Assembly (NCBI GenBank): GCA_030427245.1
Contig: JAUHXA010000040.1
Location: forward strand, 1 to 62,726
Direction of reading: 5' to 3'
Source: Bacteroidia bacterium
Lineage (GTDB): Bacteria; Bacteroidota; Bacteroidia; Chitinophagales; UBA2359
Length of the DNA: 62,726 nucleotides
The position numbers were made by a program, and so were the translations under genes. Under the pieces are notes generated by a model. The model did not search any database and was not told the origin of the DNA. It saw nothing but the letters and a program-made list of their open reading frames with translations. Positions 19,548 through 34,390 of this stretch are shown in pieces; the stretch's first letter is position 1; the number at the start of each line of letters is the position of its first letter.

Positions 19548-20612
19548 ATGCTTTTCCAAACCACCAATCAACAATCAATAAGCACTAAAATCCGCTTTGC
19601 CATCATTGGTTTCGGCAATATCGGCACACGTCATGCCAAGCACATTGTCAATCACCCCTACGCAGAATTAACAGCCGTATGTGACATAGACGGCACAAAA
19701 CTGCAACATGAAATCATTGATGCAGACGTGGAAGAACGTATTTTTTTGTGTAGCGACTACCGTCTATTATTGCAGCAATCCAATATAGATGTGGTGAATG
19801 TTTGTACACCCAATTATCTTCACCATCCCATGACCATTGCCGCATTGAAGGCAGGCAAAAATGTGGTTTGTGAAAAGCCTATGGCAATGTCTTCCCTTCA
19901 ATGTCGAGAAATGATTGAAGCGGCCAAACAAAATGACCGTCAATTATTTGTCGTCAAACAAAATCGCTATAATCCGCCTGTCAAAGCAGTCAAGGAACTC
20001 ATCGAAACGGGAAAATTAGGGCAAGTTTTTCAAGTAGCCATCAACTGTTTTTGGAATCGAAATGCCAACTATTATTTGAACTCTACTTGGCGTGGAAAAA
20101 AGGATTTGGATGGCGGATGTTTGTTTACCCAATGCAGTCACTTTGTGGATATTCTATACTATTTGGTGGGAGATGCGAAAGCGGTCAGTGGTATGATTCA
20201 CAACTTCAATCACCAAGACTTGGCCGAATTTGAAGATGCAGGTACGTTTTTGTTGAAAGGGAAAAATGGGGCATTGATTAACTTCAATTTCAGCAATTGC
20301 AGTTACGAACAAAACATGGAAGGGTCTATTACCATTTTAGCCGAAAAAGGAACAATCAAAATCGGTGGTCAATATTTGAACACGATTGACTACCAAAACA
20401 TTGAAGGCTACAAAATTCCGCCTTTACCGCAAGGAAAAGGAGCAAATGACTATGTAGGTGGCTACAAGGGTTCGATGTCTAATCACGACAAAGTGATTGA
20501 AAATGTAGTAGATACGCTGCAAGGTCGGGCACAAGTCGCTACCAATGGAGCGAATGGAATGAAGGTAGTCGAAATCATTGAAGCAATGTATGGAAGTTGT
20601 GAGAACAAGTGA
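19548..20612 (+). CDS. Gfo/Idh/MocA-family NAD(P)-dependent sugar oxidoreductase
   Basis: 354 residues. The N-terminal Rossmann fold has GFGNIGTRHA (Gly21, Gly23, Gly26), and the family signature CEKPMAM is at 108-114. The C-terminal alpha/beta domain begins around 135 (FVVKQNRYNPPVK). Members oxidise or reduce sugars, inositols or UDP-sugars with a bound nicotinamide. The exact substrate cannot be read from sequence, although similarity to the UDP-GlcNAc(A) 3-dehydrogenase branch (NQNRYNPPV-like motif) is suggestive. The next gene, a glycan-active GH130-like lipoprotein, starts 60 nt downstream, so a shared role in sugar or glycan metabolism is plausible. Confidence 0.87.
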   Translation: MLFQTTNQQSISTKIRFAIIGFGNIGTRHAKHIVNHPYAELTAVCDIDGTKLQHEIIDADVEERIFLCSDYRLLLQQSNIDVVNVCTPNYLHHPMTIAALKAGKNVVCEKPMAMSSLQCREMIEAAKQNDRQLFVVKQNRYNPPVKAVKELIETGKLGQVFQVAINCFWNRNANYYLNSTWRGKKDLDGGCLFTQCSHFVDILYYLVGDAKAVSGMIHNFNHQDLAEFEDAGTFLLKGKNGALINFNFSNCSYEQNMEGSITILAEKGTIKIGGQYLNTIDYQNIEGYKIPPLPQGKGANDYVGGYKGSMSNHDKVIENVVDTLQGRAQVATNGANGMKVVEIIEAMYGSCENK

Positions 20613-20671
20613 ATCTTGAAAAAATGGTTATATTGGGATGCAAAAATTCTATTGAACCAAACACTTCAAAA

Positions 20672-21838
20672 ATGCACCAACTATACTTACTCCTTTTTTT
20701 ATCCATTATAGGTATGGTGTCTTGCCAACCGACTACAAACCAAAATACTACTTCAAAAACAGTCCCCAGTACCAGTACCGATTGGGCTTTGACCAACTTT
20801 GTAAAAGTTGATAACCTCAACCCCATCCTTCAACCTTCTCCGGACTTAACATTTCAATGCCCTCTTACCCAGCGTACCATGAAATGGGAAGAACGCAATG
20901 TCTTGAATCCTTCGGCGGTGGTGAAAGATGGCAAAGTATATTTGTTTTTTCGAGCCCAAGATTTGAAGGGAACATCACGTATTGGATTGGCTATCAGCTC
21001 GGACGGTTTGCGTTTTGACAAACACCCTACACCTGTTTTTTATCCTGACAATGATTCGATGAAAGTCTATGAATGGAATTACCGAAAACTGGAGGGCGAT
21101 AGGGAAGCGAATAAGGAGGATTGTATTTCGTGTTATTTTGATGGGACAGAAGACCCTCGCATTGTAGAAAGTGAGGACGGAAGATACATTATGACCTACA
21201 CTGCCTATGATGGCAAAACGGCTCGCCTGAGTTTGGCTTCTTCAACGAACTTGATGAATTGGACAAAACACGGTCTGGTTTTGAACTCCGAAAAATACAG
21301 GGATACTTGGTCAAAATCTGGTGCGATTGTTTCCAAATTGGTCGGAAATAAAGTGGTAGCAACCAAAATTGATGGAAAATACTGGATGTATTTTGGAGAT
21401 ACCGATTTGTTCTTAGCGACTTCTGATGATTTGATTCGCTGGGAAGTAGCTGAAAATGAAGAAAGTAAAAAACGCATTGAAGTACTGCATCCCAGAATGG
21501 GCTATTTCGACAGCCGTTTGGTAGAACCTGGCCCTTATGCCCTGCTGCAAGAAAAGGGAATTTTGTTGATTTACAATGGCAGCAATGCCGCCAACTTCAA
21601 TGACCCCAAACTGCCTAAATTCACGTATAGTGCAGGGCAGGCATTATTCGATAAAAACCAACCTTATAAACTATTGGACAGAACGGACACGTATTTTATT
21701 CACCCTGATAAAGACTACGAAAAAGTAGGAGAAGTCAATGAAGTGTGCTTTGTGGAAGGATTGGTGTTTTTCAAAGATAAATGGTTTTTGTACTATGGCA
21801 CAGCAGATTCTAAAATTGCAGTGGCAGTAAAAGAGTAA
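20672..21838 (+). CDS. GH130-like five-bladed propeller glycosidase/phosphorylase, lipoprotein
   Basis: 388 residues from the ATG at 20672, which yields a lipoprotein signal (MHQLYLLLFLSIIGMVSC) with the lipobox cysteine at residue 18. An earlier start at 20609 would hide it. The body resembles the GH130/GH43-type propeller: LNPSAVVKDGKVYLFFRAQD, GLAISSDGLRF, GTEDPRIV (candidate catalytic Asp) and GLVFFKDKWFLYYGTADSKI. GH130 enzymes phosphorolyse or hydrolyse beta-mannosides. The specific substrate is not determined. As a lipoprotein it probably faces the periplasm or cell surface, and pairs with the upstream sugar oxidoreductase. Confidence 0.82.
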   Translation: MHQLYLLLFLSIIGMVSCQPTTNQNTTSKTVPSTSTDWALTNFVKVDNLNPILQPSPDLTFQCPLTQRTMKWEERNVLNPSAVVKDGKVYLFFRAQDLKGTSRIGLAISSDGLRFDKHPTPVFYPDNDSMKVYEWNYRKLEGDREANKEDCISCYFDGTEDPRIVESEDGRYIMTYTAYDGKTARLSLASSTNLMNWTKHGLVLNSEKYRDTWSKSGAIVSKLVGNKVVATKIDGKYWMYFGDTDLFLATSDDLIRWEVAENEESKKRIEVLHPRMGYFDSRLVEPGPYALLQEKGILLIYNGSNAANFNDPKLPKFTYSAGQALFDKNQPYKLLDRTDTYFIHPDKDYEKVGEVNEVCFVEGLVFFKDKWFLYYGTADSKIAVAVKE

Positions 21839-21891
21839 CCTTTAAGGAAAGGTGAATTAAATACAAGAATATAGAAGAAAGACCTTTTTAG

Positions 21892-21899
21892 TATCTTTG
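21892..21899 (+). promoter_or_regulatory. Candidate Bacteroidota -7 element (TATCTTTG)
   Basis: A perfect TAnnTTTG match lies 21 nt upstream of the ATG at 21921. No clear -33 TTG is seen at the usual distance. The site also contains the TTG that would be an unlikely alternative start for the gene. Confidence 0.55.
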
Positions 21900-21920
21900 T
21901 TGAGTACCAAAATCAAGCGT

Positions 21921-23495
21921 ATGAAACCATTACCTCTAAATATTCAGACTTTTAAAAGTATTATTGACAAGAAATTACTCTATGTAGATAAAACCGAAGA
22001 GATTTGTAAATTGCTCGAAGCTCCTATTGCTTACTATTTTCTCTCTCGTCCCCGAAGGTTTGGTAAATCACTATTAATAAGCACTTTACAAGAAATATTT
22101 GAAGGAAATAGAACGCTTTTCGAAGGGTTGTATATATACGATAAGATTGATTGGAAAAAACATCCTGTTATAAGGATTGATTTTAGCAAACTCACTTATA
22201 AGAATGGAGAGGAATTGGAACAAGCGATTATATCTCTTTTTAATGCGAATGCGAAAGCGTATGAGATAGTATTGGAGAAGCCGCAAATGAAAGAAAGCTG
22301 GGCAGAGTTGGTGGAAAAAATATATGAGAAAACTCAAACTGAAGTGGTACTACTGATTGATGAATACGATGCGCCAATTAACAATTTTATTGATGAACCC
22401 CATATATTGAAGGGTGTTCAAGATGTCATTCGAGAATTTTACAAAACAACTAAGGCGTTGGATGGGTATTGGCGTTTTGTGTTTGTAACAGGAATTACCA
22501 AATATGCCAAATTATCTTTGTTTTCAGCTATCAACAATATCACCGATATTAGCATACATCCAAGATATCATGCTATTCTTGGAATCGGCATTGAAGACTT
22601 GGAAAAGTACTTTCATGATTATTTACAAGTATTGGAAGAAAAGTTTCAAATGGATAGAACAACCTTATTGACACACATTCGGTGGTGGTATAATGGTTAT
22701 TCTTGGAATGGACGAAACAAATTTTTCAATCCCTATTCATTGCTGCACTTTTTTGATAGAAAAGAATTTACAAATTATTGGTTTTCAACAGGCACTCCTA
22801 CTTTGTTGGTTCAACAAATCAAAAAAACCAGCCAATCTATTGCAAAGTACGAAAAAATAGAAGTTACTCATACGACTTTTGAAAGCTTTGAAGTAGAAGA
22901 TATGCCTTTGGATGCGCTTCTTTGGCAAACGGGTTATTTGACCATTATCAAAGTAGAGGCCACTTTATATGGAGTAAATTACACCCTGTCTTTTCCCAAT
23001 AATGAAGTGAGGATTTCGTTTGTTAAACACATTTTGGCTACTTACACTAACTACCATCTGAGTCAAGTTGAACCTGATGTAAAACGATTGAAGCACTATC
23101 TATTTGAAGAAAACTTCAAAGATTTTATTCAGCTTTTGCAGCGATTTATAGGAGGAATTCCTTCAAAACTTCACATCCAACATGAGTATTATTACCATTC
23201 GCTTTTTTACATGATTCTCACCTTAGTGGGTGTCAAACTTCGCTTAGAAGAACGCTATTATAAGGGAGATATTGATGGCGTTTTGGAGTTTAAAAACAAG
23301 ATATACATTATTGAATTTAAGTACAGCAAAGATGGTCGCCGAACCATGAAAGGATTGACCCATGATGCGCTTCACCAAATCAAAGCCAAAGATTATGCCC
23401 GTCCTTTCATTGGCGAAAATCCTCAACGCAAGATTTTACTTTTAGGAATTGGGGTGTTGAATAAGGAAGTAGGTTTTGAAGTGGAAATACTATAA
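21921..23495 (+). CDS. AAA-ATPase-like protein with C-terminal PD-(D/E)XK nuclease-like domain
   Basis: 524 residues from the first ATG. Residues ~1-280 match the AAA-ATPase_like family: YVDKTEEI, a Walker A-like RPRRFGKSLL (about 37-46) and Walker B LLIDEYDAP. The C-terminal ~110 residues carry a PD-(D/E)XK-like core (GDIDGVLEFKNKIYIIEFKYSK), with Asp, Glu and Lys at the expected spacing. Paralogues are very abundant in Bacteroidota genomes and their function is unsettled; mobile or defence roles have been suggested for such families. Here the gene is alone and is followed 23 bp later by a MITE. Both active sites look intact. Confidence 0.85.
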   Translation: MKPLPLNIQTFKSIIDKKLLYVDKTEEICKLLEAPIAYYFLSRPRRFGKSLLISTLQEIFEGNRTLFEGLYIYDKIDWKKHPVIRIDFSKLTYKNGEELEQAIISLFNANAKAYEIVLEKPQMKESWAELVEKIYEKTQTEVVLLIDEYDAPINNFIDEPHILKGVQDVIREFYKTTKALDGYWRFVFVTGITKYAKLSLFSAINNITDISIHPRYHAILGIGIEDLEKYFHDYLQVLEEKFQMDRTTLLTHIRWWYNGYSWNGRNKFFNPYSLLHFFDRKEFTNYWFSTGTPTLLVQQIKKTSQSIAKYEKIEVTHTTFESFEVEDMPLDALLWQTGYLTIIKVEATLYGVNYTLSFPNNEVRISFVKHILATYTNYHLSQVEPDVKRLKHYLFEENFKDFIQLLQRFIGGIPSKLHIQHEYYYHSLFYMILTLVGVKLRLEERYYKGDIDGVLEFKNKIYIIEFKYSKDGRRTMKGLTHDALHQIKAKDYARPFIGENPQRKILLLGIGVLNKEVGFEVEIL

Positions 23496-23518
23496 CCCTA
23501 CATTTCGTAGTTCTTAAT

Positions 23519-23651
23519 CATACTACTGTACATTTTTAATTCAACCACAAAAGGCACAAAGAAAACAAAAGTAAAGAACTGAAATTCAATAACCTCTTTT
23601 GTGCCCTTTTGATACTTTTGTGGTTCAAAAATCATTTTGTATAGTAGTATG
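23519..23651. mobile_element. 133-bp MITE, copy 1, with 9-bp target-site duplication
   Basis: The element begins CATACTACTGTAC and ends GTATAGTAGTATG, giving terminal inverted repeats. The interior folds back (AACCACAAAAG against CTTTTGTGGTT; GGCACAAAG against TTTTGTGCCC). It is flanked directly by GTTCTTAAT at 23510-23518 and again at 23652-23660. The copy at 56190-56326 is the same sequence in opposite orientation with a different flanking 9-mer. It has no coding capacity, so it depends on a transposase elsewhere. Confidence 0.92.
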
Positions 23652-23764
23652 GTTCTTAATATAAAGTTTTAATAAACAAAATTTTATATTTCCGCCTTCC
23701 AATATTTCAACCACCCAAATGATTCTTTACCTGTGACACCTTATAAGAAAATATTTTTACAAAT

Positions 23765-24246
23765 ATGAATCCAAAATACACCCCCATCAACTGTGATTTC
23801 TACGATTACTTCGAAGCCTTTACAGTCAAAAAACAAGTTGTAACCATCGTTTACTTCAATGAAAATGAGAACACCGAAACCGTTGAATCCCGCATTAAAG
23901 ACCTTTACAGCCGCAACAAAGTAGAGTAGTGCCTGAACGGAAAGAGATAATTGTCTGTCTATCAAAACATAACTAATGGTTAAAACAAACGAACTTTTTC
24001 CTTCAATTTTTATATTCTTATAGCAACTTGATGTTAATTTATTAGGAATTTATTGAAGGTATTGATATATGGGGAAACTTTAAAAAGTTCGTCTGTTTAA
24101 GTGTTTAGTTATGTTTTAACACTCAATTAGTTAAGAGTTTCCGTTCAAGCACTAGAGTATGTCCTACTGGAAAACGGTTTGGAGATTAGGCTGGATTTTG
24201 TGAAGGAATTGGAGGGGATGGAGAATAGTGGATATTGTAGAAAATG
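23765..24246 (+). pseudogene. Rof-like (Rho-binding antiterminator) gene interrupted by a foldback element
   Basis: The 5' part (23765-23926) encodes MNPKYTPINCDFYDYFEAFT, then VKKQVVTIVYFNENENTETV, ESRIKDLYSRNKVE, and stops at a TAG created by an inserted element. Removing 23928-24153 plus one copy of the AGAGT duplication restores the frame exactly: NKVE continues as YVLLENGLEIRLDF, then VKELEGMENSGYCRK and a stop at 24246. The joined product (~85 residues) resembles the Rof family (YxPIxCDxYDxLE, IxDLYSRxxxEY), whose E. coli member binds Rho and inhibits termination. The truncated peptide lacks the C-terminal strands, so it is probably inactive. Family assignment is by motif recall, moderate certainty. 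Confidence 0.75.
23928..24153. mobile_element. 226-bp foldback/MITE element inserted in the Rof-like gene
   Basis: The ends are AGTGCCTGAACGGAAA and TTTCCGTTCAAGCACT, a 16-bp terminal inverted repeat with one mismatch. The flanks carry the direct repeat AGAGT (23923-23927 and 24154-24158). The interior is a long imperfect palindrome: AAAACATAACTAA, CGAACTTTTT and CCTTCAA on the left mirror TTGAAGG, AAAAAGTTCG and TTAGTTATGTTTT on the right. There is no coding capacity. No second copy was found in the window. Confidence 0.88.
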
Positions 24247-24248
24247 AA

Positions 24249-25241
24249 TTACAACAAAAACCCATCTACCGCTTTCACTCCCTCAGGAATATTCTCATCA
24301 TCAATCATTTGCCGCATATCAATCTCAATGCCCCGAGCAATTGCAGTAATTGGCACATCATTGTACGTTCCTTCAAATGGGTTTTCGGAATAATCGCCAA
24401 TCATTTCCATCAAGAAAAATACCCATATTGCCAAAGCTGAAAAAATAGGGGATAACCAAAATAACAAAGGAGCCTTATCCTCAAAAATACCCAACATACC
24501 CAAAGGAAACAAGATGCTGAATACTATCGTAACCCAAAGCGCAGTAGAAGCATATTGACGAGGAAAAGGGAAGTTTTTGATGCGTTCAGCTTTGCCTTGG
24601 TCGGCATAGAAAGACACTATGAGTTGATGAAATTCCATGTGGCGAAAATCTTCGAAATAATTCAAATCTCTCAACTCCTGCAATCGTTTGGATTGAGTGG
24701 CCAAAATCTGAGTCGCCATATTTGCCTTCGATTTGTAGCTCTCAAATTCCTCTTCCGAAATAAAAGCCATCACTTCATCGTCCAATTTTTCGTAGTATTT
24801 TTCACAAATATCAGGTGCATACAAATCATTCACTCGTTCGTCCGTATGTTCCCACTCTTTGCTCAGGCGAAGCTGATAACGCAAAGCTGTCAACCAAGCT
24901 ACGTGCCTATAAATGAGTTCTTTTTTAACCTTATCAGCCTGTTCACCTTGCACAAAAGACACTATTGCAGCACCAAAAGAACGGCTGTTGTTAACAATAC
25001 CGCCCCATATTTTTCGAGCTTCCCACGTTCTATCATACGAGCTGTTGTTTTTAAACCCCAGATAGAATGCCACTGCAATACCAATAATGCTGATAGGCTG
25101 CCAGGGCAAAGCAAGCTCAATATGGTCGTGCAACAAAAGGTGTAAAATATTGATACTGAAAGCATAAATGAGTGCATAAATAAACGGTTTCTTAGACCAA
25201 TTGAAGGTCATCCAAAATCCATAGTGACGTTTTGCATACAT
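24249..25241 (-). CDS. Bestrophin-family (UPF0187) membrane channel
   Basis: 330 residues with the bestrophin pattern: two N-terminal membrane helices (PFIYALIYAFSINILHLLL, PISIIGIAVAFYLGF), the conserved NNSSYDRTWEARKIWGGIVN segment, a long helical cytoplasmic part, and two later helices (ALWVTIVFSILFPLGML, LLFWLSPIFSALAIWVFFLM) followed by IGDYSENPFEGTYNDVP. Bacterial members form pentameric ion channels in the inner membrane. The gene ends 3 bp from the interrupted Rof-like gene and is convergent with it. It is probably monocistronic, as a hairpin lies between it and the upstream NYN gene. Confidence 0.93.
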   Translation of the reverse strand: MYAKRHYGFWMTFNWSKKPFIYALIYAFSINILHLLLHDHIELALPWQPISIIGIAVAFYLGFKNNSSYDRTWEARKIWGGIVNNSRSFGAAIVSFVQGEQADKVKKELIYRHVAWLTALRYQLRLSKEWEHTDERVNDLYAPDICEKYYEKLDDEVMAFISEEEFESYKSKANMATQILATQSKRLQELRDLNYFEDFRHMEFHQLIVSFYADQGKAERIKNFPFPRQYASTALWVTIVFSILFPLGMLGIFEDKAPLLFWLSPIFSALAIWVFFLMEMIGDYSENPFEGTYNDVPITAIARGIEIDMRQMIDDENIPEGVKAVDGFLL

Positions 25242-25323
25242 ATTGACTGATTGTTTAAAGTAGTTTGAAAGACAGCATCATTCAGCTAAGCAATAAGATT
25301 GGAAAAAAAATCGTAAGTTATTA

Positions 25324-25378
25324 AAGAGAACAGGGAATATCAAGGAATCTGCACAAATCATACATTCCCTGTTCTCTT
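25324..25378 (-). terminator. Hairpin, probable terminator of the NYN-CSD-LRR gene
   Basis: Perfect 15-bp arms (AAGAGAACAGGGAAT and its complement) with a 25-nt loop lie just after the minus-strand gene ending at 25390. The T tract on the minus strand is short (CTTTAAT), so termination strength is uncertain. Confidence 0.6.
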
Positions 25379-25389
25379 AAAAAAGACTA

Positions 25390-28134
25390 TTAAAACTTCG
25401 CTACTATTCCTTTAGTTGCCTCTTGAATTTTCTTTTTATCGTCTTTGCTTAGGCGATTATTTCGAGCATCCAATTTCGTTAGGCTGGGTAATCGTTTGAC
25501 AATGTTAGCGAAATTGTTGAATTGCAACTCATTTCCTACACATGAAAATTGTCTAAGCATTTTCATAGACTCAATACCTTTGAGGTTTTTGAGTTGATTT
25601 TTGTTGCAGTTTAAGGTATGAAGTTTCGCCAATTTGTCCGTTCCTCGAAGATTGCTGATTTCATGTTCTGCAATATTCAGGGTCTGTAATTCAGTGAGGT
25701 CTCTAAGACCTGTCATGTTGGTCAATTTGAAGGACAGTTTGTTTTTACTGGTTCGGTAAAAACTCAATCGCTTAATTTTGAGCAAGTTTTTGATTTGTGC
25801 ATTGGAAGGTCTGGCAACGATTTCACCATTTCCGGCAACTACATTAAATGCCATTTGCCATTGTTTTTCCAATGATTTCCACCAATTAGAATACTGCTTT
25901 TCTTCGTCATTCTTAGTCTTAGAAGCTACCTGAGTTCGCTTTTTAGGAAGAGGCTTGACTCGCTTTGAATTAGCCTTTGAAGAAGAACCCGTTTTTTGAG
26001 GTTTTGAAGTCTCCTGTGTGTCTCCTTCCTTTTTATTTACCTCTTTTTGAGGCTCATTCTTCGGCATTTCTTCGGCATTTGGAGCAGTTTTTTCTTCTAC
26101 CTTTTCAATAGTTCCCTCCTGTGCTTTCAAGTCTTCCTTAAGCTGCTCTCTTTCCTTTTTTGGCTTTCTCACCAATTTAGGCTTGGTTCTTTCCTCCGTT
26201 TTTGCAGCAGTCACTTCTTTCGCTTTGGAGTCAGTAGAAACTTCTTCTTTTTCAGAAGTTACAGATTGTTCTGCTGCCTTGTCCTGCTCTCTTTCTTTCT
26301 TCGACTTTCTCACCAACTTGGGTTTTGTTCTCTCCCCCGTTTTGGCTTCTTCGACTTGCTGTGCATTAACAAGCTCTGCTCCTTCATTCTTCAAATCAGC
26401 TTGAGGTTCTTTCTCTGCTTTAACCACAGGCTTTTCCTCGACCTTTTGAGTCTCTGCTTTTGCGTCCTTTGACTTCTTCACCAATTTAGGCTTCGTTCTT
26501 TCCTCTGTTTTGGGTTGTTCTACTTTTGCAGTAGTAACCTCTTCCTCTTTCACCAATTCAGGTTTAGTTCCATCCTGTGGTTTCGACGCAGATACTTCTT
26601 CTACCAATTCGGGTTTAGTCGTTTCTTCACTTTTGGGAATGTACTTCTTAGACTTTCTAACCACATTGGGTTTTGTTCTATCCTGTGAACGTTCATTTTG
26701 TTCTTTGGACTTTCCTGCTTGCCTTTCATCTGTTTTCACAGTAGCTTCTTTTGATACCTGTTCTTCCTTTGACGGTGTATCAGCATTTGGCTTCGTGTTT
26801 TTATTTTTGTTAGAAGCCTCTTTTGAAGGAAGATTCTCAACAGATGGCTTTTTTGACTTTTTCAAGACAACCTTTGCCTCCTTTTTGGGTTGATTGTTGC
26901 GTTTATCACCCGACTCTTCATTTCTTCTTTGTTTATTTTGCTGCTTATTTTGAGGTTTATCAGCATTGTCATTTTGGTGAGTCTGTTTTGAATTACCTTC
27001 TTTATTATTAGACTTTTGTTCTGGTTTATTACTTTTTTGTGAGGGGCGTTGAGGAGCATTGTCCTTACTGCGGTCGGCAGGGGCAGGTTGTGTGGAACCA
27101 CCTTGCTTCAAACGTTTGATTTCGTCTTCTCGACTTCTCAGTTTATCTTCTAAGTATTTTGTCCGATCTTTGAGTAGTTTTATTTGGACATCTCTAGGGT
27201 CTTCTGCTTCAAATTTTATTTTTTTGGCACATTCACCTTTACTGTTCGAGCCTAAAACGTAACTCACTCGCTGGTTTTTATTGATTTTGGGTACGTTTTC
27301 AGGATCGTCAAAGTAGGACTTGTAGAAAAATAAATCTTCTCCTCCACCTTCTTCTGGTTTGATGGCTCCCATTCCTCGATTATCGTCAAACTGTACGATT
27401 TTTCCCTTGATTCGTTTCTCATCTACCTCTAAGATGTCAATGCTCCGAGCATACTCCCCTTTCTCTGTTTCGTCAATAAAGAAATTAACTCGTTGTCCTT
27501 GTTCGACTGTTTGTGGCAGTTCAGAGGTTCGGAAGTTGACTTCATCTTCAATTTGATATACAATGCGCCCCCACCCTTTGTGGTTGTTTACAAACTTTAC
27601 AGTTCCTTCAAATTTTTCTCTCGGAGGATATAAGATTCGGGTAAGTTTTCGGTAAAGTTTGTCTGTAGATTCGGTTAATATGATGTTGATTTCGAGATCA
27701 AACAAAATAAGGTGGTCTCCACTGGGAACGGGAATCACTTCTCCCATAAACAATCGCATGGGTTCTGCTTCTCGCTCTTTCCATTTGTATTTAGAATATT
27801 TTGGATCGGAATAGTTATCATTGCTGATAACTGCAGAACCATGACGATGTGCCAATTCCAAAATAAAATCGTCTGCTCGTTTGCCGCCACTTACTTGATA
27901 AAACCTATCTGTGTGTTCGAGTAATTTTTTATATATTTTTTTCTCGTTGTCTGGAATATAGTAACTCGTGTTTGCGTCAAAAATGCAAAAGAAGGTTTGT
28001 TTTTTTCGTTTGATTTCGAGGAGTAGTTGGAGGAGTACTTGAAGCGACATTTCTTTGCCCCAATGACAGATGTTAGTAGCATCTATAAAATAAGTACTTG
28101 CTTCAGGATTAGGGGTGACTTTTATTCTTGCCAT
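25390..28134 (-). CDS. NYN/Zc3h12a-like RNase fused to two cold-shock domains, disordered repeats and LRRs
   Basis: 914 residues in an uncommon order. Residues ~14-165 look like a NYN (PIN-like, Zc3h12a type) ribonuclease: FIDATNICHWG, FFCIFDANTSYY, KRADDFILELA and AVISNDNYSD give acidic positions Asp18, Asp53, Asp88/89 and Asp106. Residues ~174-235 and ~242-308 are two cold-shock/OB-like domains (EGTVKFVNNHKGWGRI; KGKIVQFDDNRGMGAIKP, then EEGGGEDLFFYKS). Residues ~315-345 form a coiled coil. About 420 residues follow of Lys/Glu/Gln-rich disordered sequence with six TKPxLV-type repeats (487-657; best form ERTKPKLVRKSKK). The last ~130 residues are leucine-rich repeats (LQTLNIAEHEISNLRG, LHTLNCNKNQLKNLKG). 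It is presumably a cytoplasmic RNA-binding and cleaving protein whose LRR binds a partner (inference). It is transcribed alone. Confidence 0.8.
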   Translation of the reverse strand: MARIKVTPNPEASTYFIDATNICHWGKEMSLQVLLQLLLEIKRKKQTFFCIFDANTSYYIPDNEKKIYKKLLEHTDRFYQVSGGKRADDFILELAHRHGSAVISNDNYSDPKYSKYKWKEREAEPMRLFMGEVIPVPSGDHLILFDLEINIILTESTDKLYRKLTRILYPPREKFEGTVKFVNNHKGWGRIVYQIEDEVNFRTSELPQTVEQGQRVNFFIDETEKGEYARSIDILEVDEKRIKGKIVQFDDNRGMGAIKPEEGGGEDLFFYKSYFDDPENVPKINKNQRVSYVLGSNSKGECAKKIKFEAEDPRDVQIKLLKDRTKYLEDKLRSREDEIKRLKQGGSTQPAPADRSKDNAPQRPSQKSNKPEQKSNNKEGNSKQTHQNDNADKPQNKQQNKQRRNEESGDKRNNQPKKEAKVVLKKSKKPSVENLPSKEASNKNKNTKPNADTPSKEEQVSKEATVKTDERQAGKSKEQNERSQDRTKPNVVRKSKKYIPKSEETTKPELVEEVSASKPQDGTKPELVKEEEVTTAKVEQPKTEERTKPKLVKKSKDAKAETQKVEEKPVVKAEKEPQADLKNEGAELVNAQQVEEAKTGERTKPKLVRKSKKEREQDKAAEQSVTSEKEEVSTDSKAKEVTAAKTEERTKPKLVRKPKKEREQLKEDLKAQEGTIEKVEEKTAPNAEEMPKNEPQKEVNKKEGDTQETSKPQKTGSSSKANSKRVKPLPKKRTQVASKTKNDEEKQYSNWWKSLEKQWQMAFNVVAGNGEIVARPSNAQIKNLLKIKRLSFYRTSKNKLSFKLTNMTGLRDLTELQTLNIAEHEISNLRGTDKLAKLHTLNCNKNQLKNLKGIESMKMLRQFSCVGNELQFNNFANIVKRLPSLTKLDARNNRLSKDDKKKIQEATKGIVAKF

Positions 28135-28949
28135 AATTGTGTATCTATTTATTTTGTGGCAAGTATATACAAAAGGGGTATCATGTCTGAGTAGTTAAAA
28201 ATCACAGTAGAGGGTAACTGCAGCAGAGATTGAAGGAAAGAAAGGGAAGCCGAAAAAACTTATATACTAAAAAACTTCTATATTGTCACACTTTTTTCTG
28301 TTCTTGATAGTGTGTTTAATGGATTAATAAATTACTTTTCCATTGAATAAAAAAATGAGAAGTTGTCCTTTATATTCGTGCTTCTATGATTTTCAATTAG
28401 ACTTTAATTGTGTCTAATTTATTTTGAAAGCTTCTTTTACTAAGAATAGCATTATTTTTAATGCCGTTGATTTGGTTGAAAGACAATTTTTATCTTTTTT
28501 TGAAATCAACTTATTTTTTTACATTCCTGTCAAATCCCACATTGTTTTTGGTGATTGCTTCAATATATAGTCTAAACAATCACTAAATCTCTTTACCAAA
28601 TCCTCCTGTTTATTTAATTTTTCTAAACAAACAATTCCGTTTTCATATACTTGTCAAAGTGAAATTAAATTAATTTTCTGCAAAATTACATAATTTATCA
28701 ATATAAACTCCATATTTGGACAGCTATTGTGTTAATTATGTGTATAAATTCAACAATTTTACAGTCATTTAGTTTTTTAACAAATTTTATGCCCAACAAA
28801 TCCCCTTATTCATTTGTTTACAAAACTATTCAGGCAGTATTTTTGTAACTTTTATAGGAGATAGATGTCAAAATGCTGAAGACATGACTCAATAAATGTC
28901 TATTTTTATTGTTTAGATAATAACACACGTTTATTAATATTTTGAACTT
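28135..28949. other. 815-bp AT-rich divergent intergenic region
   Basis: This lies between the NYN gene and the Prc gene. No open frame with family features, no tRNA and no recognised riboswitch are visible. One candidate promoter toward the Prc gene is listed separately. The size is unusual for this window and could hide an untranslated RNA, but nothing in the sequence proves it. Confidence 0.5.
28813..28845 (+). promoter_or_regulatory. Candidate promoter of the Prc protease gene
   Basis: TTTG at 28813-28816 and TATTTTTG at 28838-28845, with 21 nt between, approximate the Bacteroidota TTTG/TAnnTTTG pattern. It lies 104 nt upstream of the ATG at 28950, implying a leader of roughly 95 nt. Confidence 0.45.
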
Positions 28950-31157
28950 ATGAAATTTCAATTCAAGATTCCTTTATTGGCAATGACCTTTTTGTTGTTG
29001 CTTGCCTTTACAAATGGCTCAGAAGATTCACAGAAAGATAAGATTCTTTTGCAGGTCATTCTGCAAGGTTTGAATCAGGTACATTACGAGCCACATGAAC
29101 TCGATGATGATTTTTCGGAGAAGGTATTTGGCTTGTATTTGAAGCGATTAGATTACAACAAGCGATTTTTCACCAAAAAAGATGTTGCAGACTTTGAGCC
29201 ATACAAAGATGATCTTGACAATGAGGCAGCAGAGGCTTCTTACGATTTTTTCGAACTTTCGACAAAGACACTTGATAGCCGAATTGCACAAATTGAAGGT
29301 TTTTACAAAGAAATATTGGCAAAGCCTTTTGACTTTAGCAAGGACGAATACATCGAAGTCGACTACGAAAAGATGGATTACGCAAAGGATGAAGCCGATT
29401 TGAAGGAAAGATGGCGACAATTGCTTAAATATCAAACTCTCAGCCGTTTGTCAGATAAATTGAAGCAACAAGAAGAAGGCGAAGAAAAATTGAAGGGAAA
29501 ATCTTACAAAGAATTGGAAAAAGAATCGAGAGAGAAGGTTTTAGAAAATCAAAATCGCTTTTTCAAACGTTTGGGTGATTTAGACCAAAAAGACCATTTG
29601 AGCACCTATCTCAATGCAATTACCTCTGTGTATGACCCACATACAGGCTATTTCCCACCAAAAGACAAAGAAACTTTCGATATCGAAATGTCGGGTAGGT
29701 TGGAAGGTATTGGTGCGAGATTGCAAGAAAAAGATGGTTATATCAAGGTGAGCGAAATTGTGCCTGGTAGTGCTTCTTGGAAACAAGGAGAATTGGAGGC
29801 CGAAGATGTTATTTTGAAGGTATCACAGGTAAATACTAAATTAGCAGAGTTGAGCCCTTTGGCGGCTAAAATGATGCTGAATTATTTGGGAAAAGATGAA
29901 GACATAGACTTCAAAGACAAAAAATATCAAAAGATTGATGTCAATGTGGATGTAGATGTGGTAGATATGAGATTGGACGATGCGGTTCAGTTGATTAGAG
30001 GTAAAAAGGGTACAGATGTTATGCTAACCGTCAAAAAGGTGGATGGTAGCATTAAGGAAATTACGATTACTCGAGATTTGGTGGTGATTGAAGAATCTTA
30101 CGTAAAATCTGCTATTATTGAAGAAGGTGATGCTGCCGAAAAATACGGTTATATTTATCTTCCAAAGTTTTATGCAGACTTCAATAGCACCGAAGGGCGT
30201 AGTTGCTATCAAGACATGAAGAAGGAATTGGAGAAAATGAAAGATGAGAATGTGAACGGTATTTTGTTGGATTTGAGAAATAATGGAGGCGGTTCGCTTC
30301 GTGATGTAGTGGACATGGCGGGATTGTTCATTGAGGACGGTCCGATTGTTCAGGTGAAACAAAAAGAAGGCAATCCTCATATTTTGAGAGATACAGATTC
30401 GGAAGTACATTACGATGGAAAATTGGTGATTTTGGTCAATTCTTTCAGTGCTTCGGCTTCCGAAATCATGGCGGCTGCTATGCAAGATTATGAAAGAGCA
30501 ATCATCGTAGGTAGTTCGGCTACTTTCGGTAAAGGTACGGTTCAGCGATTCATTGACCTAGACCAATCTATCAGCAGCGACTTCAATAAATTCAAACCCT
30601 TGGGTTCTATTAAATTGACTATCCAAAAATTCTACCGTATCAATGGTGGCACAAATCAACTGAAGGGTGTGATTCCTGATGTTGTTTTGCCTGATGCGTA
30701 TGCATACATTGAAGTAGGTGAAAAGGAGCAAGATTATTCAATGCCCTGGGATGAAATCACTCCTGCCGATTTTGAAGTCTTTGACCATCCTATTGCGAAT
30801 AGAGAGCAAGTATTGGTGAATAGCCGAGAGAGAGTAGCACATCATCCTACTTTCCAACTCATTGAAGAAAACGCTCAACGTTTGAAAAAACAACGAGATG
30901 AATCCGCTTACACACTTTGTTTGGACAAATACAATCGCAAACAGGTAGAATTGGAGGAAGAAAGCAAAAAATTTGAAGACATCGAAAAACCAATTGAGGG
31001 TTTGAAAATATCTTCCTTGAAGTCGGACAAAGCATCTGTTGCGGCAAGTGAAGACAAGCAAAAAACCGTAGAAGAATGGCATAAAGACTTGGGCAAAGAT
31101 GTCTATCTGTACGAGGCTTTGCAGGTATTGAAAGACATGAAAGAGGAAGCGAAATAG
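28950..31157 (+). CDS. prc: C-terminal processing (tail-specific) protease Prc/Tsp, S41 family
   Basis: 735 residues, slightly longer than E. coli Prc. An N-terminal signal peptide (1-23) is followed by a helical domain (LDYNKRFFTKKDV), a PDZ domain (~245-350; GIGARLQEKDGYIKVSEIVP) and the S41 core. The likely Ser/Lys dyad is Ser502 in NSFSASASEI and Lys528 in TFGKGTVQ. The C-terminal extension (LKKQRDESAYTLCLDKYNR) matches the DUF3340-type tail of Prc. It degrades or trims periplasmic proteins from their C-termini. It is monocistronic between a long upstream region and a strong terminator. Confidence 0.93.
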   Translation: MKFQFKIPLLAMTFLLLLAFTNGSEDSQKDKILLQVILQGLNQVHYEPHELDDDFSEKVFGLYLKRLDYNKRFFTKKDVADFEPYKDDLDNEAAEASYDFFELSTKTLDSRIAQIEGFYKEILAKPFDFSKDEYIEVDYEKMDYAKDEADLKERWRQLLKYQTLSRLSDKLKQQEEGEEKLKGKSYKELEKESREKVLENQNRFFKRLGDLDQKDHLSTYLNAITSVYDPHTGYFPPKDKETFDIEMSGRLEGIGARLQEKDGYIKVSEIVPGSASWKQGELEAEDVILKVSQVNTKLAELSPLAAKMMLNYLGKDEDIDFKDKKYQKIDVNVDVDVVDMRLDDAVQLIRGKKGTDVMLTVKKVDGSIKEITITRDLVVIEESYVKSAIIEEGDAAEKYGYIYLPKFYADFNSTEGRSCYQDMKKELEKMKDENVNGILLDLRNNGGGSLRDVVDMAGLFIEDGPIVQVKQKEGNPHILRDTDSEVHYDGKLVILVNSFSASASEIMAAAMQDYERAIIVGSSATFGKGTVQRFIDLDQSISSDFNKFKPLGSIKLTIQKFYRINGGTNQLKGVIPDVVLPDAYAYIEVGEKEQDYSMPWDEITPADFEVFDHPIANREQVLVNSRERVAHHPTFQLIEENAQRLKKQRDESAYTLCLDKYNRKQVELEEESKKFEDIEKPIEGLKISSLKSDKASVAASEDKQKTVEEWHKDLGKDVYLYEALQVLKDMKEEAK

Positions 31158-31188
31158 TGATTCTGAGTTGAATTTTTCATATAGTTCT

Positions 31189-31239
31189 AAAAAAAGAAAT
31201 CCCTTTGCAGCTTATCTGCAAAGGGATTTCTTTTTTTTT
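31189..31239 (+). terminator. Rho-independent terminator of the Prc gene
   Basis: A perfect 15-bp stem (GAAATCCCTTTGCAG with its complement), a five-base loop and T tract lie 32 nt after the stop codon. A-rich 5' flank makes it possibly bidirectional, serving the convergent kinase gene too. Confidence 0.95.
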
Positions 31240-31245
31240 AGGGTC

Positions 31246-31390
31246 AACTAAAATATTAAATTAGGCATTACTGCAATTTACTTTGCTTGCTTACAAAGTA
31301 TTGTTTGAATTTGTCTAAGGCAAACTAAAATATTAAATTAGGCATTTCTGCAATTTACTTTGCTCGCTTACAAAGTATTGTTTGAATTTG
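31246..31390. repeat. Two tandem copies of a 68-bp sequence, period 77 bp
   Basis: 31246-31313 and 31323-31390 match at all but a few positions (AACTAAAATATTAAATTAGG start, GTTTGAATTTG end). They lie between the Prc terminator and the 3' end of the convergent ROK kinase gene. No coding potential. Confidence 0.92.
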
Positions 31391-31448
31391 CATTTGAGTT
31401 TTTAATTTGAATTTGCCTAATTGTTTGTTGTTCTTTTTGGATTTCCTA

Positions 31449-32396
31449 TCAAACCTCTTCTGTCATACTGTGCAAATCCTCCAAAAATTTCGCACCAACA
31501 GCAGCCCCTATAATTCCTGCATAATTGCGAAGTTGAGCAGGCAGAATCTCCATATCCAATTTAGAACGTCCATCTGTTTTGTGTTTGTGGGCATATAGTT
31601 TGTCAAACTCCTTATCTTCCAAAAAAGGCTTATAGTTATTGAAGCGGTGTTCCTTGCTTGCGCCTCCCCCAATGATGATACATTCAGGCGACATCAAGCG
31701 TTGGATACATCGGAGATATTCCTTCAATCTTTTATTTGCCCAAGTTTCCCAGCTGATGTTTGCCTTTTTTCGGGTATAGCTTGAAGCAAAATCCTCTGCC
31801 AATTCACATTCTTTTCCATACGTTTTTTTGTCAATTTTCATGAAAAAATGCCCGAATTCGGTATTTGGAACCAACCTCCCATCAATGAACAAAGCAGAAC
31901 CAATACCTGTACCTACTGTAAAAACAATAACCGTTCCCTCCTTGCCTTTTCCGCTGCCAAAGGTCATTTCTCCAATACCTGCGGCATCTGCGTCGTTGAA
32001 GGAGGCAATAGTGATATCGGGAAGATTTTTAGACAGAAAAGTGGGGAGGTGAACACCAAGCCATTTCTTATGAATGTTGGAGGCACTTTTGACGATGCCG
32101 TTTTGGACGATAGAAGGAAAACCAAGTCCTACAACTCCTTTCCACCCATAGTGTGCTACAATTTTTTCGATAATGGCTCTGATTTCCTTGGGAGTCGGTT
32201 TGGGGTCTCTTGGAGTTTGAATTTCAAACCATAAATTGTCTTTGTCTAAGTCTTTGGGAAAATCGCCTTTTTCTATCATCTTCATCGTAAACCAGTCGCT
32301 GTTTTTCATTCTCCAAGCACCTGAATGGACTTCTACAATTGCTGCTTTGACACCGCCACCACCTACGTCAATCCCTAAAATTTCTGTTTTTTGCAT
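31449..32396 (-). CDS. ppgK: ROK-family kinase, polyphosphate glucokinase-like
   Basis: 315 residues. The ATP-binding motif is GIDVGGGGVKAAIVE (8-22). Other features are GLGFPSIVQNGIVKSASNIH and the catalytic-Asp segment FNDADAAGIGEM. VFTVGTGIGSALFIDGRLVP and NTEFGHF resemble polyphosphate--glucose phosphotransferases, which phosphorylate glucose with polyphosphate or ATP. The usual ROK zinc CxCGxxGC motif is absent, as expected for that branch. It acts in the cytoplasm and feeds glucose-6-phosphate to metabolism; a phosphohexomutase gene is 5 kb away. It is convergent with the Prc gene. The choice of polyphosphate over ATP as donor is inferred from family resemblance. Confidence 0.82.
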   Translation of the reverse strand: MQKTEILGIDVGGGGVKAAIVEVHSGAWRMKNSDWFTMKMIEKGDFPKDLDKDNLWFEIQTPRDPKPTPKEIRAIIEKIVAHYGWKGVVGLGFPSIVQNGIVKSASNIHKKWLGVHLPTFLSKNLPDITIASFNDADAAGIGEMTFGSGKGKEGTVIVFTVGTGIGSALFIDGRLVPNTEFGHFFMKIDKKTYGKECELAEDFASSYTRKKANISWETWANKRLKEYLRCIQRLMSPECIIIGGGASKEHRFNNYKPFLEDKEFDKLYAHKHKTDGRSKLDMEILPAQLRNYAGIIGAAVGAKFLEDLHSMTEEV

Positions 32397-32586
32397 ATTT
32401 TTTGGTCTATTTTTGAGGTAAAAAAGAATTTGTTCTGGTCTATTTCACTATTTTCGGGTAGCCAAAATTAGCCAAAAGGCTTAAAAACGAATAAAGTCTG
32501 TCCTTTTCTTTTTTATTTATTCCAATGTGAGGGTTTTTCCGAACAAAGAATTTTTGGACTCGGCTTTCAAATCGGAATAAACTTGT

Positions 32587-32594
32587 TATTTTTG
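32587..32594 (+). promoter_or_regulatory. Candidate -7 element (TATTTTTG) of the acidic-protein gene
   Basis: A perfect TAnnTTTG match 31 nt before the ATG at 32626. A -33 TTG at the right distance is not obvious. Confidence 0.45.
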
Positions 32595-32625
32595 CAGCCA
32601 ATAAAAAATAAATATTTAACATACG

Positions 32626-33018
32626 ATGAAAACATTAGATGCCCTTGCCTTGATCAATGATATTCGAGAAGAAATCAATGAAAATGGCTTTCAGCCCGAA
32701 ATGGTTGTCCAGCAATTGAAGGAATTACGTGGTTATGCCTTGGAGGAAAAAAATCCTGTTGCGACTAAAGCACTGAGATTGGCATATGAACATATTGCCT
32801 TACATGAGGATTTTGAGATTAAATATTTAGGAATGGATGACGAAGAGGAGGAGAATGAGGAAGAAACTGAAGATGCTGAAAAATCTGAAGAAGAAGTACC
32901 CGATCAGGAAGAAGGGGACAATTTTGGCTATTTCCTGGATTTGATTCGACATGCCGAAAACCGATTTAATCGAGCGGAGTTATTAGAAATCATTAAGTTA
33001 TTGCAAGAATACGAATAA
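32626..33018 (+). CDS. Small acidic protein of unknown function
   Basis: 130 residues, cytoplasmic and helical. The N-terminal ~70 residues are ordered-looking (LALINDIREEINENGFQPEM, VVQQLKELRGYALEEKNP). A run of Glu/Asp (residues ~77-105) links to a C-terminal helical piece (FGYFLDLIRHAENRFNRAEL). I do not recognise a family. A promoter-like element upstream and a terminator downstream bracket it, supporting a real one-gene transcript. Confidence 0.7.
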   Translation: MKTLDALALINDIREEINENGFQPEMVVQQLKELRGYALEEKNPVATKALRLAYEHIALHEDFEIKYLGMDDEEEENEEETEDAEKSEEEVPDQEEGDNFGYFLDLIRHAENRFNRAELLEIIKLLQEYE

Positions 33019-33105
33019 CTCATTTAGGTGATGGCGAAAAATTAAGTTCTTTGTTGGGTAGGTAGTAAGGATTTTTGAAGTTTATCCTTTGAAGAATGTT
33101 GATTT

Positions 33106-33128
33106 TCCTCATAATGAGGATTTTTTTT
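33106..33128 (+). terminator. Rho-independent terminator after the acidic-protein gene
   Basis: A short stem TCCTCA/TGAGGA with a three-base loop is followed by T8. The remaining ~300 bp to 33433 show no gene or clear signal. Confidence 0.75.
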
Positions 33129-33433
33129 AAAGCAGGACTTCGAAAGTCTAAACAGGGAAGTTATTTTAGCTCAACCTCCCCCTACTTTATCCGAAAGAAA
33201 GGGAAATAAAAGCTGCAAAGTTGTTTTTTCTTCGTTCTTAAAAGAAAAAATGGCGCTTTGTTTTCTTCAAAATTTGTTTTTTGCATTTTTAAAACGCAAG
33301 TAAATTTCAAAATCAGCTTTACTATAAGAAAGACAGAATCCGTAAATAACGGCAACTTCTTTCTATAGAAAAAATGATTGTAACCGAACGACCTATTTTC
33401 TTTCCCAACGACAATTATATTTTTTTCACCTAT

Positions 33434-34183
33434 TTATAGTTTCTTGAAAAACCAATCAAGGTTTTTACCGTAAGTCCGACTCAAGGGAATTTTATTCTTT
33501 CCTTGATCCATTAATGAATGAGTATCCTCATCTATTTTTTCCAAATTTTTGATGACCAAATACCTTCGGCCATTGATACTAACAGCACTTTCGATGTGCT
33601 GTACATTCACAATAAAAGATTCGTGAACCCGCACAAAATGAGTATGTTGCAATCTTTCTGCACACGTTTTTAGAGGAACCGTCAAGGTATAACTTTTGTC
33701 CTTCAATCTCACCCGAGAATAGACTCTATTGGCTTCAATCCACAAGATTTCGCTCAATTTTACCTTTTCATTGGCATTTCTATTTTTTACGAAAGCATAT
33801 TCTTGATATCTGAGATGCTCTTTTTCAAGTACAAGTGTAATGCGTTTTCTTAAATCCGCCGCATTAAATGGTTTGTCAACAAAAGCCACAGGAGAAGTTT
33901 TCATCGCTTCCTTGAAGTATTCTTCATGCCCTGAAACATAAATCACAGGCAGTAAACCTTTTGTTTGAATGTGTTGAACGGCTTCAATACCATTCATACC
34001 TCCTTTTTTCAAATCAATGTCCATTAGCAGCAGATCGGGTTTAAAAGTACGACTAACGCTAACTGCTTCTTCCCCCGAATCTACCCATTTGATATGCATA
34101 TAGCCCAACTTCCTAAGAAGGCCAATAATTTCTTGTGCTGTAAGGGCGTGATCTTCTACCACCAAAATTTTTACATTTGACAT
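33434..34183 (-). CDS. LytTR-family response regulator
   Basis: 249 residues. The receiver domain (1-120) has the acidic pocket Glu10/Asp11, phospho-acceptor Asp55 in LLLMDIDLKKGG and Lys104 in FVDKPF. The LytTR DNA-binding domain follows (~133-240; KLSEILWIEANRVYSRVRLK, FVRVHESFIVNVQHI). Such regulators bind direct repeats in promoters. The cognate kinase is not adjacent. The gene is divergent from the M1 peptidase gene, whose promoter region it shares. Confidence 0.92.
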   Translation of the reverse strand: MSNVKILVVEDHALTAQEIIGLLRKLGYMHIKWVDSGEEAVSVSRTFKPDLLLMDIDLKKGGMNGIEAVQHIQTKGLLPVIYVSGHEEYFKEAMKTSPVAFVDKPFNAADLRKRITLVLEKEHLRYQEYAFVKNRNANEKVKLSEILWIEANRVYSRVRLKDKSYTLTVPLKTCAERLQHTHFVRVHESFIVNVQHIESAVSINGRRYLVIKNLEKIDEDTHSLMDQGKNKIPLSRTYGKNLDWFFKKL

Positions 34184-34279
34184 ACTTTTTTCCGAATTTT
34201 AGAAAGTTGATAGTTAAGTTGAATTTTGGGTAAAGAAGAAAATAAGTGGGATTTTACTTTACAGCAAAACAGAAACGCT

Positions 34280-34337
34280 GATTATCAAATCATTGCACGT
34301 CGTTTCTCTGTTCTCGCTTTTCTTGTCCAAAGTCCAA
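34280..34337. repeat. Diverged copy of the GATTATCAAA/GTCCAAAGTC dispersed repeat
   Basis: It begins GATTATCAAAT and ends TTGTCCAAAGTCCAAA, matching the layout and several blocks of 18478-18536. It lies between the LytTR regulator and the M1 peptidase start. Confidence 0.55.
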
Positions 34338-34390
34338 ACGGTTTTCTTCTTGAAAAATACTTATTTTGCAGAATAAAACAGCCATTTATC

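What the first reader, a model, noticed from the sequence alone, without database searches (positions are those of the whole stretch)
25390..28134. NYN ribonuclease, two cold-shock domains, disordered TKPxLV repeats and leucine-rich repeats in one protein
I know of no characterised bacterial protein with this order. The acidic positions of the nuclease look intact, the two OB-like domains would hold RNA, and ~420 residues of Lys/Glu-rich sequence with six recurring TKPxLV motifs could drive condensation or multivalent binding. The LRR could recruit a partner. It may be a regulated RNA-decay hub or an RNA-targeting defence protein.
Basis: partly seen in the sequence, partly recalled or inferred. 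Interest (0 to 1): 0.72.

Follow-up and report, generated by a model that had tools for sequence, protein, structure and literature searches.

The report
Regnase-like ribonuclease with cold-shock domains
A Bacteroidota bacterium carries a large, vertically inherited protein that joins a nuclease resembling the human mRNA-cutting enzyme Regnase-1 to two RNA-binding cold-shock domains, a long charged tail and a leucine-rich docking domain; it is probably a lineage-specific enzyme of RNA processing or decay, not a defence protein.

Summary
The architecture is real. ORF 25390-28134 (-), 914 aa: Zc3h12a/Regnase-type NYN, CSD1, CSD2, probable coiled coil, Lys/Glu-rich linker, WW-capped LRR. The NYN is found in 18 of 20 genomes of the family; rpoB in 16 of 20. 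Its tree resembles that of rpoB. No plasmid, viral-contig or phage relative was found. Outside the family NYN relatives are rare; 0 of the 11 seen match CSD or LRR. TKPxLV occurs in this protein alone among 20 ORFs, and its linker charge is not blocky, so TKPxLV-driven condensation is not supported. Best reading: a chromosomal Regnase-type endoribonuclease of the cell's own RNA metabolism, with CSDs gripping RNA, the coiled coil perhaps pairing chains, and an LRR docking site kept in 12 of 18 orthologous ORFs not cut at the C-terminus. Defence is disfavoured. Activity, targets and partners are untested.

The parts
25390..28134 (-). whole ORF, 914 aa, ATG start
   Evidence: NYN-CSD relatives in 18 of 20 genomes of the family
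27619..28095 (-). Zc3h12a/Regnase-type NYN (PIN-like) nuclease domain, aa 14-172; Asp18 (28081-28083), Asp53 (27976-27978), Asp88 (27871-27873), Asp106 (27817-27819)
27433..27615 (-). cold-shock domain 1, aa 174-234
27211..27414 (-). cold-shock domain 2, aa 241-308
27103..27198 (-). helix aa 313-344 with heptad pattern, probable coiled coil
   Evidence: 0 of 300 shuffles reach the heptad score in this protein
25885..27102 (-). Lys/Glu-rich low-complexity linker, aa 345-750, presumed disordered from composition
26170..26676 (-). stretch holding five TKPxLV and one TKPNVV, aa 487-655; not seen in the 19 other ORFs
25390..25884 (-). WWxxLxxxW cap plus leucine-rich repeats, aa 751-914, and stop codon

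Best explanation
A chromosomal, vertically inherited, Regnase-like endoribonuclease that works in the cell's own RNA processing or decay. Inferred mechanism: CSD1 and CSD2 bind single-stranded RNA and feed it to the NYN site, where Asp18, Asp88 and Asp106 hold the metal ion that drives cleavage; the coiled coil behind CSD2 pairs two chains, which would help because the Regnase-1 PIN domain needs oligomerisation for activity in vitro; the basic linker tethers RNA or ribosomes without sequence specificity; and the LRR docks a partner or a site in the cell. Shown here: domains, conserved residues, constraint on the NYN, presence in most genomes of the family. Inferred: cleavage, dimerisation, RNA targets, LRR partner.
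For: The NYN profile (20 ORFs) hits, below E 0.01 among solved chains, only ZC3H12A/B/C and KHNYN (best E 1.2e-5); 20 of 20 NYN segments match PF11977 at E <= 1. In that alignment D18, D88, D106 pair with Regnase-1 D141, D226, D244; D226N plus D244N is the inactive mutant in PMC4772114 (passages). NYN model: the nine best VIA rows are all ZC3H12 PIN domains, Z 8.7-8.1, 118-131 residues, rmsd 3.5-3.8 except 11.4 for one. CSD profile matches solved cold-shock proteins, best E 5.3e-13. NYN dN/dS 0.006, 0.013 and 0.051 in the 3 of 6 pairs with a finite dS. NYN in 18 of 20 genomes, against 16 of 20 for rpoB and for RNase E/G. NYN-CSD and rpoB distances correlate, r 0.82-0.83, 0 of 2,000 permutations as high; 7 of 11 splits shared.
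Against: No activity shown. The structure models rest on two sequences and are weak (mean pLDDT 67 and 65; aa 106-144, which begins at Asp106, is under 50 in the NYN model); plain Foldseek gave no match at E <= 0.001 for the NYN model. As whole proteins only 7 of 17 scanned ORFs pass the PF11977 cut-off, and L037 and L054 show no PF11977 match at E <= 0.05. Whole-protein CSD scores of L041-L043 are under cut-off. RNase E/G and RNase Y are present, so a decay role is not needed. No gene neighbour is shared widely. 6 of 18 ORFs lack the LRR. One paralogue has D106N. The heptad signal is weak or absent in 6 of 19 linkers. 4 of 11 tree splits disagree.
Confidence: 0.6

Rival explanations
1. Stable-RNA maturation enzyme (a narrower form that overlaps with the best explanation): the NYN cuts rRNA or tRNA precursors and does not drive mRNA decay; CSDs and the basic linker hold structured or ribosomal RNA.
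For: Below the ZC3H12 rows PRORP (protein-only RNase P) structures score Z 8.0-6.4, with KHNYN at 7.9 among them; one copy in 16 of the 18 genomes that have it; RNase E/G and RNase Y are there for mRNA decay.
Against: PRORP is not the best match, and no PRORP or maturase family is listed for this protein or its profile. The only tRNA gene found in the window lies about 10 kb away.
Confidence: 0.25
2. RNA-targeting defence effector (abortive-infection or TOTE/CoCoNuT-like) that cuts phage or own RNA on infection, with the LRR as a sensor.
For: LRR plus nuclease is a sensor-effector style (recalled); CSD1 has a sub-threshold match to S1CSD-TOTE-1 (16.9 bits, cut-off 27); CSD and coiled coils occur in CoCoNuTs (PMC11090510, passages); an ORF about 2 kb away, 21897-23495, is AAA-ATPase_like plus PDDEXK_9 and matches PADLOC Cas4_II at E 5e-4.
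Against: 18 of 20 genomes and a tree resembling rpoB; of 6 window proteins scanned, PADLOC matches only this protein's CSD and the ORF just named; no McrB or McrC family among 9 neighbours scanned; no plasmid, viral-contig or phage match; by eye, neighbours in relatives include CTP synthase-, LepA- and ribosomal-protein-like ORFs; LRR absent in 6 of 18 ORFs.
Confidence: 0.07
3. RNA-binding regulator whose NYN is catalytically dead: a cold-shock-type chaperone or translation regulator.
For: Asp89 varies; one paralogue (L045) has D106N; PIN domains that lost activity are known, such as that of DIS3L (PMC4598762, passages).
Against: D18, D53, D88 in 20 of 20 and D106 in 19 of 20; NYN more constrained than the CSDs in the three pairs where both have a finite dS (0.006-0.051 against 0.066-0.277).
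Confidence: 0.1

Closest known systems
Regnase-1 / ZC3H12A-C (MCPIP) endoribonucleases
   Same: NYN/PIN subtype, aligned catalytic aspartates, nearest solved structures
   Different: No CCCH zinc finger after the NYN (no Cys at aa 124-240, read); two CSDs instead; bacterial; long linker and LRR
Dis3/Rrp44 (PIN-CSD1-CSD2-RNB-S1)
   Same: Order PIN-like endonuclease, CSD1, CSD2 (PMC4598762, passages)
   Different: No RNB or S1 family listed; the NYN is Zc3h12a-like; two exosome chains in Foldseek align with TM 0.20-0.21 and rmsd 24-26, which is no support for a shared fold arrangement; probably convergent
RNase E with disordered C-terminal scaffold (BR-bodies)
   Same: Endonuclease plus a long charged low-complexity tail (PMC10412687, passages)
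   Different: Unrelated nuclease; no charge blocks in this protein; these genomes also have an RNase E/G of 516-560 aa in 16 of 20
Other Bacteroidota Zc3h12a-like NYN proteins (389-503 aa frames)
   Same: PF11977 match in 9 of 11
   Different: NYN C-terminal in 10 of 11 (N-terminal in L057); 0 of 11 match CSD or LRR
CoCoNuT systems (McrB/McrC with CSD and coiled coils)
   Same: CSD and coiled coil in a nuclease system (PMC11090510, passages)
   Different: No McrB GTPase or McrC family among 9 neighbours; different nuclease

Membership tests
Zc3h12a-like NYN nuclease domain (PF11977) | Profile match over Pfam's cut-off (23 bits) | tested here: met
   25.2 bits for the domain alone, 24.2 in the genome search; but 21.1 for the whole protein, and 7 of 17 whole ORFs over cut-off; 20 of 20 NYN segments at E <= 1
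Zc3h12a-like NYN nuclease domain (PF11977) | Catalytic aspartates at the D141, D226, D244 positions of Regnase-1 | tested here: met
   D18 and D88 in 20 of 20, D106 in 19 of 20; pairing read from the alignment; D226 and D244 roles from passages; D141 recalled
Regnase/ZC3H12 proteins proper | CCCH zinc finger directly after the NYN (recalled) | tested here: not met
   No Cys at aa 124-240 (read); no zinc-finger family
Cold-shock domain proteins (PF00313) | CSD over cut-off, two copies | tested here: met
   43.4 bits, cut-off 27, two stretches; 16 of 16 segments at E <= 0.1, with L047, L051, L052 and L053 left out of that alignment; L047, L052 and L053 match as whole proteins; L051 is cut
Leucine-rich repeat proteins | LRR units in the C-terminus | tested here: met
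   E 2.4e-9 to a solved LRR protein; this protein is under each Pfam LRR cut-off; L040-L043, L047, L052, L053 are over LRR_4's, L037, L038, L045, L046 under it
Dis3/RNase II | RNB exonuclease and S1 domains | tested here: not met
   Neither is listed at E <= 10
RNase E-type scaffold | Charge-block disordered tail | tested here: not met
   Charge variance equals that of shuffles, 455 of 1,000 reach it
CoCoNuT type IV restriction | McrB GTPase and McrC neighbours | tested here: not met
   None among 9 neighbours scanned, 19548-36880
TOTE conflict systems | S1CSD-TOTE-1 domain over Pfam cut-off | tested here: not met
   16.9 bits whole protein, 19.8 for the CSD segment, cut-off 27
Anti-phage defence system | Protection against phage | not testable with these tools
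   Needs plating assays
Active endoribonuclease | Metal-dependent RNA cleavage | not testable with these tools
   No assay available

The most novel reading that the evidence does not exclude
A bacterial family has built, independently of RNase E and of the exosome, its own multidomain RNA-decay nuclease: a Regnase-type endonuclease in the Dis3-like order PIN-CSD1-CSD2, paired by a coiled coil and carrying a fast-changing basic tether plus an LRR adaptor. Two genomes hold a second copy with an acidic linker, one of them (L045) with a changed active-site residue, which could act as a regulator of the basic-tailed enzyme.
Probability: 0.3. Interest if true: 0.65.

Novelty: new variant of a known kind. 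Interest (0 to 1): 0.45.

Why it matters
Regnase-1 is known as a nuclease that cuts inflammatory mRNAs in animals (PMC4772114, abstract passage). A bacterial relative kept by most genomes of one family, with cold-shock domains where Regnase has a zinc finger, would give a tractable system for asking what this nuclease class does outside animals, and it shows the PIN-CSD-CSD order outside the exosome. It also adds a candidate endoribonuclease to Bacteroidota, beside RNase E/G and RNase Y.

Tried and rejected
PF01936 NYN: no match in the genome at E <= 0.001, so the subtype is Zc3h12a. Rfam in 25000-29100: 0 matches at gathering score. Conserved 5' leader (the upstream gap is 815 bp): blastn of up to 815 bp upstream gives matches in three pairs of close relatives (L038-L039, L042-L043, L052-L053) plus one 38-base match (L048-L049), none with the window, so a shared leader RNA was dropped. 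Operon or partner gene: ORF clusters are shared mostly between close relatives; a bestrophin-like ORF lies near the gene in the window and in L054, and an S41-peptidase-like ORF in the window and in L038, each 2 of 20 loci; several contigs end close to the gene. Replacement of RNase E or RNase Y: RNase E/G is found in 16 of 20 and RNase Y in 20 of 20 (19 over cut-off). TKPxLV as conserved motif: 0 of 19. Charge blocks: only L047 and L054 clearly exceed shuffles. Foldseek on the NYN model: no match at E <= 0.001; among its listed rows are a VapC toxin and PRORPs, mixed with unrelated folds. Regnase did not appear in the Foldseek rows shown; it came up only in the VIA second look. PIN superfamily review PMC5499597 is not held, so whether it lists NYN-CSD fusions is unknown. 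Literature: the listings of searches show no title or abstract start on a bacterial NYN-CSD fusion; the one paper holding 'cold shock domain', 'NYN domain' and 'fused' (PMC9181182, passages) mentions them separately; find-searches in PMC2848206 and PMC11346440 gave 0 occurrences of 'cold shock'. This covers only the held open-access library.

Full report
The thing itself. Window 25390-28134 (-) is one ATG ORF of 914 codons. Pfam gives RNase_Zc3h12a at aa 16-123, CSD (two stretches), a sub-threshold S1CSD-TOTE-1 match at aa 174-225 and several LRR models, all under their cut-offs, around aa 778-905. GC of the ORF (0.390) is that of the window (0.388).

Family. A protein search with aa 1-310 finds the gene in 18 of 20 genomes of the same family; a profile of the NYN (A1) gives the same 18. 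The two misses are drafts of 75% and 93% completeness. In the same set rpoB is found in 16 of 20 and RNase E/G in 16 of 20, so the presence is at the level of a core gene. I extracted 20 ORFs (the window's own included); G013 and G016 have two copies each. L045 is cut by a contig end at its start, L039 and L051 at their ends. One named record is known, JAHDBT010000342.1, a Bacteroidetes MAG, apparently the contig also met as G004:C285 (both 7,948 bases).

Spread. With A1, 20 of 396 genomes of the order match (18 of family f1, 2 others), 7 of 395 of the class (own plus 6) and 4 of 395 of the phylum (own plus 3). The samples overlap, and at most 9 candidates per genome were scored in these three calls. 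All 11 outside hits were read and scanned with Pfam: 9 of 11 match PF11977, 0 of 11 match CSD or LRR. They are frames of 389-503 aa with the NYN at the C-terminus in 10 of 11; L057 has it at the N-terminus, with a DnaJ-type cysteine-rich region. An earlier protein search of 149 genomes of the order gave 25 with a match; the 8 outside f1 are alignments to the CSD1 region only. tblastn found nothing in plasmids or phages; in viral contigs 67 stretches matched a pattern and none was confirmed. In one search, PF11977 was found in 1 of 14 control genomes, Methanocaldococcus jannaschii. No other phylum was sampled for the fusion, and the genome-contig scan used short exact peptide patterns, so it is insensitive.

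Nuclease. The A1 profile against solved chains gives ZC3H12A first (E 1.2e-5), then ZC3H12B, ZC3H12C and KHNYN; three further rows are at E 0.094 or worse. In that alignment Asp18 pairs with D141, Asp88 with D226 and Asp106 with D244 (numbering worked out from the chain positions; D141 recalled). Asp18, Asp53 and Asp88 are invariant in 20 of 20, Asp106 in 19 of 20; position 89 is D in 12, S in 4, P in 2, G and T in 1 each. The proposed Asp89 mutant would therefore probably miss the conserved residue; Asp88 should be used. PMC4772114 (passages) reports the D226N/D244N mutant as catalytically inactive and PIN oligomerisation as needed for activity in vitro. As whole proteins, 7 of 17 scanned ORFs pass the PF11977 cut-off; this one scores 21.1 of 23, and L037 and L054 show no PF11977 match at E <= 0.05. 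The family profile, not single-sequence scores, carries the assignment.

Structure. AlphaFold with two sequences gave mean pLDDT 67 for aa 1-345 and 65, pTM 0.66, for the NYN alone, with aa 106-144 under 50. The VIA second look put nine ZC3H12 PIN structures on top (Z 8.7-8.1), then PRORP and KHNYN, then Rae1/YacP and FEN-type nucleases; the first unrelated fold is at Z 5.3. The tool warns that Z under about 8 may mean only a common arrangement; I use it only together with the sequence profile.

RNA-binding part. In CSD1, Gly189 is in 20 of 20, Trp188 in 12 of 20 (Tyr in 3), Phe201 in 19 of 20 (Tyr in 1); in CSD2, Phe269 is in 17 of 19 and Phe270 in 19 of 19, but position 255 is aromatic in 7 of 19. 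These are the RNP1 and RNP2 surroundings (names recalled). 16 of 16 CSD segments match PF00313 at E <= 0.1; L047, L051, L052 and L053 were left out of that alignment. As whole proteins L041-L043 are under the CSD cut-off. L047 and L054 have three CSD stretches.

Coiled coil, linker and LRR. A helix at aa 313-344 (block pLDDT 63-87) has a heptad pattern that 0 of 300 shuffles reach. Of 19 linkers tested, 9 have at most 2 of 300 shuffles reaching it, 4 have 7-21 and 6 have 25-183 (L051 was too short). Linkers are net positive in 17 of 19 and net acidic in L045 (-0.26 per residue) and L047 (-0.15). TKPxLV is confined to the window protein. Charge is not segregated in the window protein (z 0.0); 13 of 19 linkers have a negative z, 7 of them clearly (at least 970 of 1,000 shuffles as high or higher), while L047 and L054 are blockier than all but 1 and 2 shuffles. 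The WWxxLxxxW cap plus LRR is in 12 of 20 ORFs, or 12 of the 18 not cut at the C-terminus; L044, L048, L049, L050, L054 and L055 lack it, the end of L049 running through unread bases. The cap-LRR profile is common elsewhere: 47 of 60 genomes of the order have a match, with 38 places in the own genome.

Selection and descent. NG86 dN/dS for the NYN is 0.006, 0.013 and 0.051 in three of six pairs (dS 0.42, 3.08 and 2.35, the last two near saturation); the other three pairs gave no finite dS. CSDs give 0.066-0.302 in five pairs. rpoB and NYN-CSD trees of 14 genomes share 7 of 11 splits, with distance correlation 0.82-0.83 and 0 of 2,000 permutations as high.

Surroundings. Downstream lies a bestrophin-like gene, upstream and divergent a tail-specific protease. 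ORF clusters are shared mostly between close relatives; a bestrophin-like ORF near the gene recurs in L054 and an S41-peptidase-like ORF in L038. Of 6 window proteins scanned with PADLOC, this one matches only by its cold-shock domain, and 21897-23495 matches Cas4_II at E 5e-4.

Reading. The evidence supports a vertically inherited nuclease of the cell's own RNA metabolism. That it cuts RNA, that it dimerises and what the LRR binds are inferences. The defence reading is disfavoured by distribution and context but not excluded. The most novel reading is a convergent decay hub; the lack of charge blocks, the presence of RNase E/G and RNase Y, and the absence of the LRR in a third of the ORFs tell against its strongest form.

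Noticed in passing
L045:9959-11791 (-) and L047:181-3255 (+): Second copies in two genomes with acidic linkers; L045 has Asn in place of the catalytic Asp106 and may be a pseudo-enzyme.
   Followed up: partly
L058-L062, L083, L118, L119: A separate group of Bacteroidota proteins of 460-503 aa with a C-terminal Zc3h12a-like NYN and an unassigned N-terminal region that looks repetitive by eye.
   Followed up: partly
L057:1498-2850 (+): NYN-like domain joined to a possible membrane segment (by eye) and a DnaJ-type cysteine-rich region.
   Followed up: no
L067:688-2760 (+): Protein with three WWxxLxxxW-like cap plus LRR modules in tandem (by eye), so the cap seems to mark an LRR type used by other proteins of the family.
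   Followed up: no
21897-23495 (+): AAA-ATPase_like plus PDDEXK_9 protein with a weak PADLOC Cas4_II match.
   Followed up: no
28135-28949: 815 bp gap before the divergent protease gene; no Rfam match and no upstream similarity of the window to the other loci.
   Followed up: yes
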